From assembly GCA_016195275.1 (NCBI GenBank), contig JACPZZ010000017.1, positions 85,581 through 123,381 of the forward strand: a stretch of DNA of 37,801 bases, given 5' to 3'. The position numbers and the translations under genes are program-made. The notes under the pieces were generated by a model. That model saw only the letters and a program-made list of their open reading frames with translations, was not told where the DNA came from and did not search any database. The first letter of the stretch is position 1. Each line of letters opens with the position of its first letter. Shown here one piece after another: positions 9,407 to 33,755 of the stretch. Source of the stretch: Candidatus Aenigmatarchaeota archaeon. GTDB lineage: Archaea > Aenigmatarchaeota > Aenigmatarchaeia > JACPZZ01.

Positions 9407-9455
9407 ACCCTGTGAACTACTTCACGTTTCGCGCGAAGCTTCCTGATTGTCTGCA

Positions 9456-9506
9456 TTGAGAAATCCATAGGATTTCTCAAATAAAAAACCAACAGGTTTT
9501 CTATTT
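9456..9506. repeat. Tandem double-hairpin repeat, copy 2
   Basis: Hairpin one (9456-9480) has an 11-bp stem, TTGAGAAATCC with GGATTTCTCAA, and loop ATA. Hairpin two (about 9479-9506) has a 12-bp stem, AAATAAAAAACC with GGTTTTCTATTT, one A-C mismatch and loop AACA. The first stem is identical to that of the copy at 14539, and the second differs at one base. The loops differ in both sequence and length. Confidence 0.8.
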
Positions 9507-9753
9507 GTTTGCCAAGTTCGGCTTTACACAATACGTGGATGCGTGCAAATTCGTTATTGCGACCGTTTACGCCTGCGTGTGGACAATGAAATTCCCCATC
9601 TTGCGAAAGGGGACTTCTCGGGGACAAGGTTAAAAGCCGGGCTTTGCCAAAAAAGTAGGACTTAAACAGCCGCTTTTTGAGCAGGAAAACCTTTTGCCTA
9701 AAAAAGGGTAAGTCGCAGGGTTCTTAAATTTAACCTTAGTTAATTAGTTGAGA

Positions 9754-9764
9754 ATTATATAATA
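9754..9764 (+). promoter_or_regulatory. TATA-box promoter of the CHAT cassette
   Basis: ATTATATAATA, centred about 20 nt before the ATG at 9779. It is the only good promoter ahead of the three-gene cassette, whose genes overlap or abut, so the cassette was probably one leaderless transcript. Confidence 0.6.
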
Positions 9765-9778
9765 TTGGATGTGCACAA

Positions 9779-9958
9779 ATGACTGTGGATCGTTTTATGA
9801 AAGTTTATTCGAATCTGCCTATAAAAATCAGGGATGAGATAGTTTTAGTATTAGACGGCAAGCCAATAAGCTGGAATGTAGCTTACAACGAAATAAAACA
9901 TAACACTAAAGCGGGCGAAACAATAATAAGTAAATTAGTTGAGTTGGGTGTTATCTAA
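9779..9958 (+). CDS. Small conserved-looking protein, first gene of CHAT cassette
   Basis: A 59-aa protein of unknown function with a single globular-looking stretch and no membrane segment: FMKVYSNLPIKIRDEIVLVL, then SWNVAYNEIKHNT and a helical tail KAGETIISKLVELGVI. The start is the only ATG at the right distance from the TATA box. Its stop overlaps the next ATG by one base (TAATG), so translation is coupled. Gene order with the next small protein and a caspase-like peptidase suggests that it works with that peptidase, perhaps as a regulator or inhibitor; this is inference from context. Confidence 0.7.
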   Translation: MTVDRFMKVYSNLPIKIRDEIVLVLDGKPISWNVAYNEIKHNTKAGETIISKLVELGVI

Positions 9959-10164
9959 TGGCCACCGAAATAACAAAGGATGAAATAGATATCGTGCTGG
10001 TCAGACTTAGAGCGATCCCAGAAAACGCTCTAATATCTATCGGTGGTCCCGAAGGGTCTTTATCCAAGGAAAAATTGATAGAGGAAGTTGAAAATCTTAC
10101 GCCGTTGGGTAAACGAATCATAGAGATGCAAATGTTATATCTTAGATCGTTCAAAAAGGGCTGA
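9958..10164 (+). CDS. Small protein, second gene of CHAT cassette
   Basis: A 68-aa soluble protein of unknown function. Visible parts are a DIVLVRLRAIPENALISIGG segment and a charged helix KEKLIEEVENLTPLGKRIIE. The end (MQMLYLRSFKKG) mirrors the TxxGxxII layout in the tail of the first protein, so the two may share a helical fold. It starts on the last base of the preceding gene and ends 18 nt before the earliest standard start codon of the peptidase frame. The tight packing marks a functional unit. Confidence 0.7.
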   Translation: MATEITKDEIDIVLVRLRAIPENALISIGGPEGSLSKEKLIEEVENLTPLGKRIIEMQMLYLRSFKKG

Positions 10165-10181
10165 TCCAAATATTAATAACA

Positions 10182-10755
10182 TTGCCCGATCATGATGATC
10201 TAACTCGCTATGCAAGTGCTTGGAGCGATGAAATACTTCTAAAGACCGCGGAAAGAGTCGGGATAAAACCGATAATATCAAAAGGTAAAAATGTTGTTAA
10301 ATCTCAAGTAACTGAAAATATAACATCGAAAAATCCCAGATTTATTTTCTTCAATGGGCACGGTTCTGATACTACCATCGGAGGTTATCGGAATGAACCT
10401 TTGATAGTTCTAGGGAAAATGATAATTTATTGGAAGGCAAAATAGTTCATGTTATCGCTTGCGATGCCGGAATGTCTCTTGGAAAGGAGTGTAAATCAAA
10501 GGCGTTTATCGGGTATATCGGCAACTTTTGGTTGTGTATGGATAGATTCAGCCTATCAAGACCGTTAGAAGATAAATTCGCTGCTCCAATAATGATTTCA
10601 GCATTAGAAGCACCTAACCAGCTTTTAAAAGGAAATACGCCCACAGCGAATCCAAATATACTGCAACAGAACTGCAATTGATTCTTCCGGTTCTTAACAT
10701 AAACAAGCTCATGCAAGTGATATATGAAAAATCCGAAGGCAGAAAGGACTTTTAA
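10182..10755 (+). pseudogene. Caspase-like (CHAT/C25-type) peptidase, frameshifted
   Basis: Three successive frames rebuild one protein. Part one (10182-about 10415) contains FFNGHGSDTTIGG, with the catalytic His of the clan CD caspase-like fold. A one-base loss in GGGAAAA near 10414 shifts to a second frame, giving NDNLLEGKIVHVIACDAG with the catalytic Cys and then AFIGY. A second one-base loss near 10630-10640 moves to a third frame ending at 10755. The likely first strand (QILITLPDHDD) lies upstream of the first standard start, TTG 10182, so the start too may be damaged. Both shifts are -1. Such peptidases are used in cell-death and defence systems in other lineages; here the gene looks inactivated, or less likely needs frameshifting. 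Confidence 0.7.
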
Positions 10756-10819
10756 GGCAAACCCTAAAAGCCAGTTAACCTTAAATATATGCCCTGCCTT
10801 CTCTTGTTTTGGGTTATTT

Positions 10820-11404
10820 ATGAAAACGTTATATTTTCAAGACCTGTTCAGGGAAAATTTTGAAGCCGCGCTTGAGTGGGAACTCACGTGTCTTCAGGAA
10901 ACAGGCCTTACAGTAGAACGGTTTGTTACCGCAGTACAGTATGCGAAATGGCTTGTTAATCGTGGCATGCGGCACGGTGTGGAATCGGTTACGGTGAAAG
11001 ACCTTAACACCCCGTATAATCTATTGGGCGGATCGCACATTGCAAGAAGGAAGGACGGCCACGTGGAAATTGACACCAATCTCCACGGTCTTGTAGGGGT
11101 TAAGCAGTTAAACCCAAGAAATAGGAGGCTTATTGTGTATCCTGGCAGCTCTGAAGACGCCAAAAAAGTAGCAAGCACATTCCAGACGATAATGGCTGTT
11201 GATCTCAAACCTTTTGTGGATTTGCAGGCCAGAAGGCTTGGCCGCCCGTCCGTTAACGAATTACACGAACCTGTCCGGCTGCCTGACGGCAGCAGTTTTT
11301 TCCACGCTTACGAAGTGGGGATGCGCTATCGTGTGAACGTCCCACTCGGAATGATGCCTGCGCTTTACGCACAATCGAAGAAATCGACAGCCAGCTACAA
11401 ATAA
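10820..11404 (+). CDS. Hypothetical protein, 194 aa
   Basis: Not recognised. The protein looks soluble, with a helical N-terminal half (ENFEAALEWELTCLQETGLT) and a mixed middle containing LLGGSHIARRKDGHVEIDTN. The later region has VYPGSSEDAKKVASTFQTI and a C-terminal section rich in Arg and Pro. The ATG at 10820 was chosen over one at 10724 because the latter lies inside the peptidase remnant. A TATA-like TTAAATATAT at 10781-10790 is about 30 nt before 10820, consistent with an independent promoter. No catalytic motif is evident. Confidence 0.65.
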   Translation: MKTLYFQDLFRENFEAALEWELTCLQETGLTVERFVTAVQYAKWLVNRGMRHGVESVTVKDLNTPYNLLGGSHIARRKDGHVEIDTNLHGLVGVKQLNPRNRRLIVYPGSSEDAKKVASTFQTIMAVDLKPFVDLQARRLGRPSVNELHEPVRLPDGSSFFHAYEVGMRYRVNVPLGMMPALYAQSKKSTASYK

Positions 11405-13284: not shown

Positions 13285-13962
13285 TCATTTTGCGAGCATC
13301 TTCCTTCCCACGCTGCAGACTTTGTTGTATTTGCACGAGGCGCATGTCTGCTTTGAAATGGGCAGCCACTCGGAATCCATCATGGCAAAGCTTCGCGGCT
13401 TGGGCATTTCCCTGTTTTCGAGTATGTTGCCCGCGAGCGCCGTAAGCATTGGCATGTCGCCTGCCCACAAAGAAAGCTGTCTTCCCGAAACTTTGAATTC
13501 CGTGTGTTCCGGCGAGTTGAATTTCCTGAACCTTATAGACGCGCCGGCAACCTCGACCATGTCCCTGAACTTCGGATCCCTCGGAGTCATGAACGCATAC
13601 GAAGTCAGCTGTATCCTGTGCATATCGTTCATTCCCAGGAAATTCGAACGTGAAAATTTGTCGTCCCTGATTATGACCGCGTTCTTTTTGCTTTCGTTAT
13701 GCCCCATGAATTCCATTTCGTCTATCCTGCCCCGTATGCCCGCCTCATAATCAGCCACGCTTACCTCGCGCGCCACGAACCTCTCTCCTTTAATCGTTTT
13801 TTCTATAATCTCGTCTTGGGTGAAAAATTCCGCCTGCTGGTGCAATTCACTGTGCCTCTTCGCCCCCTGCATCATCGCTTGCGTTACTATCTTCGCTTTT
13901 TTATTGAACAAAAAAGCGATCTGGCATAATCCGAGATAAGAAAGGTCTGATACCGAAATCAT
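13285..13962 (-). CDS. Cas4-like PD-(D/E)XK nuclease with Fe-S cysteines
   Basis: A 225-aa protein with the layout of Cas4/RecB-family exonucleases. An early cysteine (C13 in YLGLCQIAFLF) combines with a C-terminal cluster C207-x2-C210-x5-C216 to give the four ligands of a 4Fe-4S centre. Between them are an early HSELH motif, GRIDEM with the acidic residue of motif II, IIRDDKFSR as motif III (D..K), and HRIQLTSYAF as a QxxxY-like motif. Such enzymes resect DNA ends. No cas1, cas2 or repeat array is in the window, so a role in CRISPR adaptation is not supported; a free-standing repair nuclease is more likely. ATG 13962 begins the conserved fold and has a TATA-like ATACTTTTAAG about 30 nt upstream. 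Confidence 0.8.
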   Translation of the reverse strand: MISVSDLSYLGLCQIAFLFNKKAKIVTQAMMQGAKRHSELHQQAEFFTQDEIIEKTIKGERFVAREVSVADYEAGIRGRIDEMEFMGHNESKKNAVIIRDDKFSRSNFLGMNDMHRIQLTSYAFMTPRDPKFRDMVEVAGASIRFRKFNSPEHTEFKVSGRQLSLWAGDMPMLTALAGNILENREMPKPRSFAMMDSEWLPISKQTCASCKYNKVCSVGRKMLAK

Positions 13963-14043
13963 ATTATCTTTTCGTTTCACACCCCTTAAAAGTATTGCCG
14001 GATTGAAGTTCCTATAAGAATCGGGCTGGACTCTTATGACGAG

Positions 14044-14180
14044 TTGAACGAATTCATAAATAAATGGAGACAAACCAGATGCTCATGCGGCAATTCGTTT
14101 TATGCGCCTACCCAAAAGTTATCAACGATGAAAGTTTTCATTGCGCTTGGTGCGGAACTGAATATCACTGGAAAAACTAA
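14044..14180 (+). pseudogene. Zinc-ribbon protein gene with one -1 frameshift
   Basis: The first frame (TTG 14044) reads INKWRQTRCSCGNSFYAPTQ. After CCCAAAA at 14111-14117 the continuation is in the -1 frame, KVINDESFHCAWCGTEYHWK, with a stop at 14178. Joined, they make a compact CxCG ... CxxCG zinc ribbon of about 45 residues. A TATAAG element at 14012-14017 sits about 27 nt before the TTG. Either one A was lost from the run or slippage on the run is needed. Confidence 0.55.
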
Positions 14181-14516: not shown

Positions 14517-14538
14517 CGACGTCGCAGGATGCTCAACA

Positions 14539-14589
14539 TTGAGAAATCCAGAAGGATTTCTCAAATAGAAAACCAATGGTTTTCTATTT
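14539..14589. repeat. Tandem double-hairpin repeat, copy 4
   Basis: The first hairpin (14539-14564) has the 11-bp stem TTGAGAAATCC/GGATTTCTCAA with loop AGAA. The second (14563-14589) has a perfect 12-bp stem AAATAGAAAACC/GGTTTTCTATTT with loop AAT. Both stems match copy 2 at 9456-9506 (one mismatch), while both loops differ. Confidence 0.85.
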
Positions 14590-30779: not shown

Positions 30780-33755
30780 CTACTTTATAACCCCGGACCC
30801 TATTAATCTCCATCGATTCGCGATTTGCCGCGAAATCGCGACGCGGTTCCCTTTTTCAACGCACACCGGCAATTTCAGAGAAATTTCGAAATTATCCTTT
30901 CTTGCAGACGTCACAATGCCGACAGTGCGGCTCGTTCCGATTGTCAGCATCAATGGCTCATTAGTGCGTATGTTATCGACCTTCATCGTATCTTCAGCGC
31001 CGATAATGCTTTCCATCAAATCCGTTTCGATGTGCAATTTGTGCAGCACCGAAGGTAATTTATTCGGATGCCCGACAACCGAACCGGCCAATGAATCCGC
31101 CTTTGTTAGTGCAGGATCAAGCTCTGTCATTAACCCTACAAGCCCGCCCGGTCCCGCCTTGTCCAATAACATGTTTCTTTTGTGCAAGCCTGCAACCTTT
31201 GTGAAAAGAGGTTCCCAAAAAATCTTGTTCTCACGCTCAACCCTTAAGCCTGGACGGATTTCTATTTCATCCCCAACTTTAAACTCCCCTTGCAGTAACG
31301 ATCCGCCCAAAACTCCGCCTGATAATTTTTCGGGCGTATAGCCGGGCTTGTTTACATCAAAAGTTCTCACAACAAGCATCTTGGGATTTTTCTTTGGGTC
31401 GCGCTTTGGCGTAGGTATGGTCTTTTCAACCGTCTCGATTAACGCGTCTAAGTTTATCCTCTGCTGCGCGCTTATCGGGACAATAGGTGCGCTTTCAGCT
31501 ACTGTCCCGTTGACAAAATTTTTTATCTGCTCGTAATTTTCCTTCAACTTTTCCGGCGGTACGATGTCGATTTTATTTTGGACTATCACGATTTTCTCAA
31601 CGCCCGTTATGTTCAAAGCCGCCAAATGCTCGCGCGTTTGCGGCTGCGGACATTTTTGGTTGGCCGCAATCAAGAAAAGCGCGCCGTCCATTAACGCTGC
31701 ACCAGCCAGCACCGTCGCCATTAACGTTTCGTGCCCCGGCGCATCGACCAAGCTGACTGTGCGCAACGGCACAGAATCAGAAACATGTTTCAGGCATTTT
31801 GGCGATGTTGAATAAGATTCAAAACCTTCGCACTTCTCACACTTATAAATTGTTACGTCAGCATAACCCAGTTTAATTGTCAACCCTCGTTTCTGCTCTT
31901 CAGAATGCGTGCCAGTCCATTTGCCGCTTAGCGCTTGTAAGAGGGTCGTATTGTGCGAGATTATGCCGCCAAACCCAGCAATAAAGTTTTGATGTTCAGG
32001 GACAGAAAGGTCTATTATTTCCCCATTGTAATTTGTTTTCTCAATTCCTTTTATAACATCGAAGCTTATATTTTTGTGGTATAAGGCCTGCAACTGCGCA
32101 GATATTCTATTTATTGCTGTGTTATTGGAGTTTTTACACGCAATTTTTATATCCTTTAAAAATTCTAAAAATTTATCCTTTGAAAATCTGTTGGTGTTAT
32201 AACATGCGTTGTACGCATAAAACCAGGATTTTTGGCGGATGCGTTTTTTGTCCCATCCCAATAATTTGCACAACGTGTTCAAGATCCTATGGTCAATGAA
32301 TACAACCTCCAAAGATTTCCTGGAATCCGGTCGCAAACCGGAGATTGACCGGTTCATTAACGCTGCCTTTTTTTTGTCTTCTATGCCTACCAGCCTGATG
32401 AAATTTGCAATATTTTCTCTGCCGCATATGCTAAGTGTATAATATTTCCTGCGTATTTTCTTCGGCGAATTTGTTGCAAATCTGGTTTTATCACCCAGAC
32501 ACGCCCTGATACCGAGTTTATTCAGCATATAAACCAGCATATTTATATCGTGTTTGTTTCTTTGTATTACAACTATTTCCCTGCTTTTCTCGAAGCTGCC
32601 TTCCAGTATTATGAACCATTTCAAAAAAGTAGCCGTTAGCTTCTTATCTAAGCTCAGAACCCACCTGCATATCGGAGATTGCATAACATTTCCTGTACAG
32701 AAAAAATACTTTTCTTTAAGGTACCTTACAAACGCCTTATTGTTCAAATGGTAATCTATATCGCTTACTTTTTTAAATTCTACTCCGAATTTATCTTTTG
32801 ATATGCTTAAAAACTCCGAAAGTAAGTTTTTGTAATTCTTCTGGGAGACAGAAATCCTTGCTTCTGTACTGGTTCCTTCAGAGTGCACAAAACTGAACCA
32901 TCTGACTATATTTTCGTCCATGGCTTTGGGGTCTCTAATTTTGGTGATCGCACCTTTTTTGCGGTCTAAAAAAACGATTTCGTCCTTAGACAGTACCGGC
33001 TTGGATAACGAAAAAAATTTGGACAGCGCACGTTTTACGTTGTCGGATAAACCGCGCCTTTTTAAAGAAAGTACTTCCCCCAGATATGAGTCGGAATAAC
33101 CGACCCTTGCGGAAAGTTTAGATAAACTTAATCCGCATATTATTCTCAATTTATTGAAATCTTCGATTGTAAACTTCTCGAAGTTTACGAAATTGCCAGA
33201 TTTATTCTTAATGCCAATAAAATCTTCATACACCAGTACGATATACTCTTTTGACATGCTTCCAATAAAATCCCCCAGTTTAATTTCTGTTTGTTCTGGA
33301 AGATCGCCTGCAAACACAGCAACCTGGTCGGTTTTAGGGTTTAATGAATTAGCGCATACCCATTTCAATGAGCCCATACGGTTAACCAAAAATGGGTGCG
33401 AAGGTGTTACTTTTATGCTTCTGCCGCTCCTTGTTTTAATTTCAAACATAGGACCCTTGTATTTTTGTAAAAATATCAGCGGTCTTGCACGAACCAAATT
33501 GAAATCGCTGTCCAGCGAGTACGTATAAAGTCTGGGCAATTCGTATACCCTTTCGCCGCCTTCTTGTCTTATCAACTTACCGTCCGATTCCGCAAGTGCT
33601 TTTAAGTTAACGCCACTGGTCAGGTGATTATTAATCAATATATCCTCATCTAAAGCTATACATTTTCCATGTTCAACGTGTCCTACCGTACCAATGTTTG
33701 CTTCTGGTATAAGTTTTTCATTGACCTCGGTTTTCATCGAATAAAATTCACTCAT
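30780..33755 (-). CDS. eif2g: Initiation factor aIF2 subunit gamma with intein
   Basis: A 991-residue precursor. Residues 1-31 and 603-991 join to give a 420-aa aIF2-gamma, the GTPase that carries initiator tRNA. The mature protein has P-loop GHVEHGKTTLLQ, RGLTIKLGYAD switch, a zinc knuckle (CEKC with later C), DAPGHE, NKID, and the C-terminal beta-barrel domains. The 571-residue insert begins right after the P-loop lysine, so GTP binding depends on splicing. It follows eS6 by 18 nt on the same strand, a common archaeal pair. An in-frame ATG at 33737 is an alternative start; AGGA upstream of 33755 favours the longer form. Confidence 0.95.
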   Translation of the reverse strand: MSEFYSMKTEVNEKLIPEANIGTVGHVEHGKCIALDEDILINNHLTSGVNLKALAESDGKLIRQEGGERVYELPRLYTYSLDSDFNLVRARPLIFLQKYKGPMFEIKTRSGRSIKVTPSHPFLVNRMGSLKWVCANSLNPKTDQVAVFAGDLPEQTEIKLGDFIGSMSKEYIVLVYEDFIGIKNKSGNFVNFEKFTIEDFNKLRIICGLSLSKLSARVGYSDSYLGEVLSLKRRGLSDNVKRALSKFFSLSKPVLSKDEIVFLDRKKGAITKIRDPKAMDENIVRWFSFVHSEGTSTEARISVSQKNYKNLLSEFLSISKDKFGVEFKKVSDIDYHLNNKAFVRYLKEKYFFCTGNVMQSPICRWVLSLDKKLTATFLKWFIILEGSFEKSREIVVIQRNKHDINMLVYMLNKLGIRACLGDKTRFATNSPKKIRRKYYTLSICGRENIANFIRLVGIEDKKKAALMNRSISGLRPDSRKSLEVVFIDHRILNTLCKLLGWDKKRIRQKSWFYAYNACYNTNRFSKDKFLEFLKDIKIACKNSNNTAINRISAQLQALYHKNISFDVIKGIEKTNYNGEIIDLSVPEHQNFIAGFGGIISHNTTLLQALSGKWTGTHSEEQKRGLTIKLGYADVTIYKCEKCEGFESYSTSPKCLKHVSDSVPLRTVSLVDAPGHETLMATVLAGAALMDGALFLIAANQKCPQPQTREHLAALNITGVEKIVIVQNKIDIVPPEKLKENYEQIKNFVNGTVAESAPIVPISAQQRINLDALIETVEKTIPTPKRDPKKNPKMLVVRTFDVNKPGYTPEKLSGGVLGGSLLQGEFKVGDEIEIRPGLRVERENKIFWEPLFTKVAGLHKRNMLLDKAGPGGLVGLMTELDPALTKADSLAGSVVGHPNKLPSVLHKLHIETDLMESIIGAEDTMKVDNIRTNEPLMLTIGTSRTVGIVTSARKDNFEISLKLPVCVEKGNRVAISRQIANRWRLIGSGVIK
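31950..33662 (-). mobile_element. Intein (571 aa) with degenerate homing-endonuclease region
   Basis: The insert starts with nucleophile Cys in CIALDEDILI and block B VTPSHPFLV follows about 85 residues in. It ends NFIAGFGGIISHN followed by Thr, giving a class 1 Cys...His-Asn/Thr intein. The middle holds a helix-turn-helix-like part (SKLSARVGYSDSYLGEVL). Two LAGLIDADG-like helices have acidic-plus-glycine ends (WFSFVHSEGTST and FLKWFIILEGSF), with Glu where Asp is usual. Endonuclease activity is therefore uncertain. Coding is A/T-richer than the exteins, consistent with transfer. Confidence 0.93.

What the first reader, a model, noticed from the sequence alone, without database searches (positions are those of the whole stretch)
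9779..10755. Three-gene cassette: two small proteins plus a caspase-like peptidase, with the peptidase broken
Two overlapping tiny genes (59 and 68 aa) with a similar tail layout are followed directly by a frameshifted clan CD peptidase with visible His (FFNGHGS) and Cys (VIACDAG) motifs. One leaderless promoter precedes the set. CHAT and other caspase-like peptidases are effectors of defence and cell-death systems elsewhere. Small co-encoded partners could be inhibitors, sensors or substrates. I know of no characterised archaeal system with this order. The peptidase, and only it, is damaged, as expected for a costly toxin losing function.
Basis: partly seen in the sequence, partly recalled or inferred. 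Interest (0 to 1): 0.75.

Follow-up and report, generated by a model that had tools for sequence, protein, structure and literature searches.

The report
Mobile three-gene archaeal protease cassette
Scattered archaea carry an undescribed, horizontally moving set of three genes, two tiny related proteins followed by a caspase-clan protease, and in this genome only the protease has broken, which is what one would expect if the small proteins normally hold a dangerous protease in check, although that role is not yet shown.

Summary
The two small genes (59 and 68 aa, "SP1" and "SP2") and the broken peptidase recur in the same order in archaea. The peptidase was found in 28 of 392 archaeal genomes. 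All 26 intact copies have SP2 directly upstream, and 25 also have SP1. All three genes are under strong purifying selection (dN/dS 0.03-0.05). The catalytic His and Cys are invariant. By profile-profile comparison the peptidase is related to Peptidase_C25 (gingipain family, clan CD), not to CHAT. None of the three proteins matches Pfam convincingly, and the peptidase also misses NCBIfam, PADLOC, PHROGs and the PDB. The cassette is patchy, absent from four congeners, multi-copy in some genomes, and has crossed between archaeal lineages. One congener has a near-empty site. SP1 and SP2 probably share a fold. In the window the peptidase has two frame breaks and no normal start codon, while SP1, SP2 and neighbouring genes read cleanly; four other loci show a broken peptidase beside intact small genes. 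Orphan SP2 genes exist; an intact peptidase without SP2 was never seen. My best explanation is a toxin-antitoxin-like module with the small proteins as inhibitors. That mechanism is inferred, and the predicted peptidase fold failed, so clan membership rests on sequence profiles.

The parts
9755..9760 (+). TATA-like box (TTATAT) 24 nt upstream of the SP1 start; probable single promoter of the cassette
   Evidence: A/T box 23-39 nt upstream of the SP1 start in the loci examined; not tested experimentally
9779..9958 (+). SP1, 59 aa small protein (conserved W; F...R...W..A..E...I)
   Evidence: profile match in 18 genomes of the phylum; W35 in 31/31; dN/dS 0.03 in an intact pair
9958..10164 (+). 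SP2, 68 aa small protein (invariant R16, P21, G51); predicted alpha-beta-beta-alpha-alpha fold
   Evidence: R16/P21/G51 in 36/36; AlphaFold2 pLDDT 86.6, pTM 0.73; dN/dS 0.046
10167..10418 (+). Peptidase, N-terminal piece with catalytic His motif (NGHG); no ordinary start codon
   Evidence: profile positions 4-86
10412..10711 (+). Peptidase, middle piece with catalytic Cys motif (ACDAG), in another frame
   Evidence: profile positions 85-187 with two stop codons inside
10645..10752 (+). Peptidase, C-terminal piece in a third frame
   Evidence: query 157-192
9407..10775 (.). Segment between cdc6 and the downstream gene's promoter that has no counterpart in congener G087 (near-empty site; approximate ends)
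   Evidence: the same two flanking genes are about 280 bp apart in G087, or less if the longer G087 reading frame is used

Best explanation
The region is a decayed copy of a mobile three-gene archaeal module. Shown: SP1 and SP2 are real, selected, probably paralogous small proteins; the third gene encodes a compact cysteine peptidase with no obvious signal sequence, related by profile to family C25 of clan CD and carrying an invariant His/Cys dyad; the three are co-encoded and inherited together; and the set moves between archaeal lineages. Inferred: it works like a toxin-antitoxin or abortive-infection module. SP2 (with SP1, perhaps as a heterodimer of like folds) would bind the peptidase as it is made and hold it inactive; loss, modification or capture of the small proteins, for example on infection, would free the peptidase to cut cell proteins and stop growth. 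In this genome the peptidase has been inactivated while the two inhibitors remain.
For: Same order in all loci with enough sequence, bar one lacking SP1. SP2 beside 26/26 intact peptidases, SP1 beside 25/26. Small genes are tightly coupled and upstream of the peptidase (gaps mostly -8 to +26 nt), as antitoxins often are. Purifying selection on all three. His 30/30 and Cys 29/29 invariant. C25 relation: hhalign probability 93-95%, E 4e-7 to 3e-8, motifs aligned, controls no better than 0.026. Patchy: 28/392 genomes, 0 of 4 congeners, three copies in each of two genomes. Lineages outside the class do not form one clade (AU p 7.5e-73). Near-empty site in G087 and a different gene at the same place in G089. 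Peptidase broken beside intact SP genes in five loci (G000, G052, G043, G303, G188); orphan SP2 in G029, G134, G150, G153 and G078:C43; never an intact peptidase without SP2. Several copies lie next to AbiE, HEPN-nucleotidyltransferase or PIN genes, an integrase or a transposase.
Against: No toxicity, inhibition or defence has been measured. The loss asymmetry is not strong: by gene length alone ten losses all sparing SP2 have a probability of about 0.06. One intact copy (G302, L115) has no SP1 just upstream, so SP1 cannot be strictly required in cis. Orphan SP2 in two congeners is only weakly constrained (dN/dS about 0.34). No match to any PADLOC model, and no relative in phages, plasmids or viral contigs. 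Toxin-antitoxin neighbours are common in such genomes and enrichment was not tested.
Confidence: 0.42

Rival explanations
1. Proteolytic signalling: one of the small proteins is the peptidase's substrate. On a signal the peptidase cuts SP1 or SP2 and so releases or destroys a small regulator, as Csx29 cuts Csx30 in type III-E CRISPR systems.
For: Near-obligate co-encoding; SP2 carries an Arg invariant in 36/36, and C25 enzymes such as RgpB cut after Arg (PMC4357240); the Csx29-Csx30 precedent (PMC10028731).
Against: SP2 is predicted as a compact fold with the invariant Arg inside helix 1, not in an open loop; no conserved linker or leader; two unlike small proteins would both need explaining.
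Confidence: 0.23
2. Immune sensor-effector system: SP1/SP2 are activating sensors or adaptors rather than inhibitors, and the peptidase is the effector.
For: Patchy, mobile, multi-copy distribution and defence-like neighbours.
Against: Orphan SP2 and SP-retaining, peptidase-broken loci are easier to explain with inhibitors; small folded proteins with no recognisable nucleotide- or ligand-binding domain.
Confidence: 0.18
3. Cellular regulatory or processing protease with no conflict role; its patchiness reflects gene loss in small genomes.
For: Strong purifying selection; no phage, plasmid or viral relatives.
Against: The tree strongly rejects a simple vertical split of the lineages; three diverged copies in one genome; near-empty site in a congener.
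Confidence: 0.12
4. The breaks in the window peptidase are assembly errors and the gene is intact in the organism.
For: The genome is a draft in 34 contigs; no reads were available.
Against: Two frame breaks plus a missing ordinary start in one gene, while about 3.3 kb upstream and the gene downstream read cleanly; similar decay in other genomes.
Confidence: 0.12

Closest known systems
Peptidase family C25 (Pfam PF01364; gingipain family, clan CD)
   Same: Profile-profile match over the catalytic half with His (GHG) and Cys motifs aligned; only a weak single-sequence match (E 0.083 in one of 16).
   Different: About 215 aa, no obvious signal sequence, no pro-region or large secreted architecture; the archaeal C25 matches here lie in open frames of about 340-2700 aa; always in a cassette with small genes.
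Csx29 (TPR-CHAT) with Csx30/Csx31 in type III-E CRISPR (Craspase/CASP; PMC10028731)
   Same: Caspase-clan protease co-encoded with partner proteins in a conflict setting.
   Different: Csx29 is a CHAT protease with a TPR domain and is RNA-activated through Cas7-11; our profile did not match CHAT (thin CHAT profile), and no Cas effector is encoded in the cassette.
Type II/IV toxin-antitoxin modules (e.g. AbiE, HEPN-MNT)
   Same: Small genes coupled to and upstream of a potential effector; patchy, mobile; sometimes side by side with such modules.
   Different: A peptidase would be an unusual toxin; two probably paralogous small partners instead of one; no antitoxin family matched; function untested.
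Prokaryotic metacaspases (C14; PMC3501461)
   Same: Same clan-level His/Cys dyad.
   Different: No profile match to archaeal C14 (thin profile); different genetic setting.

Membership tests
Clan CD cysteine peptidase | Ordered His then Cys dyad, with a Gly next to the His | tested here: met
   H 30/30, C 29/29, Gly after the His 30/30; definition from PMC4357240
Clan CD cysteine peptidase | Caspase-like alpha/beta fold with the dyad at the ends of strands 3 and 4 | tested here: inconclusive
Peptidase family C25 (PF01364) | Sequence match to the family profile | tested here: inconclusive
   Pfam scan below threshold; profile-profile E 3e-8, far better than controls: related, not shown to be a member
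CHAT (PF12770) | Match to the CHAT profile | tested here: not met
   No Pfam hit; hhalign probability 2-3% against a thin archaeal CHAT profile
Toxin-antitoxin system | Co-encoded small partner adjacent to the effector | tested here: met
   SP2 beside 26/26 intact peptidases, SP1 beside 25/26
Toxin-antitoxin system | Effector toxic alone, neutralised by its partner | not testable with these tools
   Needs expression experiments; indirect support only from SP genes outliving the peptidase
Toxin-antitoxin system | Patchy, horizontally mobile distribution | tested here: met
   28/392 genomes; non-monophyly p 7.5e-73; near-empty site
Known anti-phage defence systems (PADLOC-DB 2023) | Match to a described defence protein | tested here: not met
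   no credible match (best 0.0045 to Cmr5 in one of 16 peptidases)
Type III-E CRISPR Csx29-Csx30 | TPR-CHAT protease with Cas7-11 | tested here: not met
   No CHAT or TPR match in the roughly 215-aa protein

The most novel reading that the evidence does not exclude
A categorically new archaeal conflict system: a caspase-clan (C25-related) peptidase kept in check by a pair of paralogous small proteins of a new fold, spread horizontally among archaeal lineages and causing programmed dormancy or death on infection.
Probability: 0.3. Interest if true: 0.85.

Novelty: new variant of a known kind. Interest (0 to 1): 0.62.

Why it matters
I found no described archaeal system of this make-up in the open-access papers searched, and the three protein families are absent from the libraries scanned. 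If the small proteins inhibit the peptidase, this would be a protease-based toxin-antitoxin or immune module native to archaea and small enough to test with three short synthetic genes. It bears on where caspase-clan proteases entered cell-death and immunity systems, and gives a signature (SP1-SP2-peptidase) for finding more.

Tried and rejected
CHAT and C14 as the peptidase family: no profile match, though those reference profiles held only two or three sequences. Phage, plasmid or viral carriage: no relatives found. Database families for the small proteins: only sub-threshold Pfam hits and no significant PDB or fold match; weak response-regulator winged-helix hits to SP2 were not pursued. 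An early alignment (A1) held a placeholder stretch in one row; it was replaced by A4 and not used further. The genome-contig scan used one broken sequence and found a single relative, so it says nothing on bacteria. No obvious target-site repeats flank the cassette.

Full report
What is in the sequence. SP1 (9779-9958) and SP2 (9958-10164) are two short open frames sharing one base. They are followed at once by a region that encodes, in three successive frames, pieces of one peptidase with NGHG and ACDAG motifs. The expected start is a CTG overlapping the SP2 stop; no ATG, GTG or TTG is available there. One relative (G114) likewise lacks an ordinary start and seems to begin at ATT, so the start alone is not proof of damage; the frame breaks are. 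Flanking genes in this draft genome read cleanly.

It recurs. A first search found the peptidase in 17 of 156 genomes of the phylum, which is Candidatus Aenigmatarchaeota by the title of relative L002. With a profile it is in 18 of 156 and in 28 of 392 archaeal genomes overall, ten of them outside the class. Every locus with enough upstream sequence shows SP1-SP2-peptidase on one strand, except one G302 copy (L115), where SP2 is present but no SP1 lies in the 157 bases before it. Gaps between the genes are mostly -8 to +26 nt. In a pair of close relatives (G355, G302) dN/dS is 0.03 for SP1, 0.046 for SP2 and 0.041 for the peptidase: all three are selected proteins.

What the proteins are. The peptidase family keeps the His in 30/30 and the Cys in 29/29 rows, with Gly after the His, as clan CD requires (PMC4357240). 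No member passes a Pfam, NCBIfam, PADLOC or PHROGs threshold, and the profile finds nothing in the PDB. Against archaeal C25 domains taken from related genomes, hhalign gives 93-95% probability and E 4e-7 to 3e-8 with both motifs aligned; reversed and 30 column-shuffled controls reach at best 0.026. CHAT and C14 gave nothing, but on thin profiles. The fold itself is unconfirmed: the only model I could run, of an N-terminally truncated fragment, failed.

SP2 is predicted with good confidence as helix-hairpin-helix-helix (pLDDT 86.6, pTM 0.73), with no significant structural match. Its R16, P21 and G51 are in 36/36 sequences, and SP1's W35 in 31/31. SP1 and SP2 match each other over about 31 residues of the C-terminal half (E about 1e-4 against 0.009 for the best of 100 shuffles), so they are probably paralogues.

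It moves. The four other genomes of the window's genus lack it. In congener G087 the two flanking genes, cdc6 and the 194-aa gene, are adjacent; in G089 another gene (344 aa) follows cdc6. G119 and G302 each carry three diverged copies. On the peptidase tree the ten rows from outside the class fall in several places, and holding them together is rejected (AU p 7.5e-73). Pairwise distances of the three proteins correlate (Mantel r 0.58-0.76, p 0.001), so the cassette tends to travel as a unit. Some copies sit beside AbiEi/AbiEii, HEPN-nucleotidyltransferase or PIN genes, an integrase or a transposase; enrichment over background was not tested.

It decays in one direction. Besides the window, the peptidase is broken or truncated next to intact SP genes in G052, G043, G303 and G188; G229 is broken throughout; G152 and G338:C20 are remnants. 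SP2 occurs without a peptidase in G029, G134, G150, G153 and G078:C43, and in part in G090; SP1 alone in G151. No intact peptidase without SP2 was seen. Gene length alone gives about 0.06 for ten such events sparing SP2, so this supports but does not prove that the peptidase is the harmful partner. Draft-assembly errors may account for some single breaks.

Mechanism. Shown: a conserved, mobile, selected cassette of two small proteins and a dyad-bearing, C25-related peptidase. Inferred: the small proteins hold the peptidase inactive and its release harms the cell. Rivals are substrate processing, activation by the small proteins, and a non-conflict role. I searched open-access papers for a described counterpart and found none; subscription journals and preprints were not searched.

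Limits.

Noticed in passing
30780-33755 (-): Archaeal initiation factor aIF2 gamma interrupted in its GTP-binding domain by an intein with a LAGLIDADG-like domain.
   Followed up: partly
9454-9506 and 14537-14589: A roughly 54-bp palindromic repeat (91% identical) occurs twice; the first copy, between cdc6 and the cassette, folds into two hairpins (z -2.5). Possibly a REP-like element or terminator.
   Followed up: partly
10820-11404 (+): The gene downstream of the cassette lacks about the first 60-80 residues of its G087 homologue although the promoter region looks similar.
   Followed up: partly
13285-14073 (-): PD-(D/E)XK nuclease with weak Cas4 matches; no CRISPR context was examined.
   Followed up: partly
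L127 (G089), after cdc6: The site next to cdc6 holds different genes in three congeners: the cassette, the bare 194-aa gene, or a 344-aa protein; it may be an insertion hot spot.
   Followed up: partly
class-wide, e.g. L133-L162: Large C25 peptidases are common in these archaea and their relatives (35 of 294 genomes).
   Followed up: no
L066/L069 (G153, G150): Orphan SP2 next to a type I restriction-modification-like gene and near RadC-like genes in two congeners (gene names by eye).
   Followed up: partly
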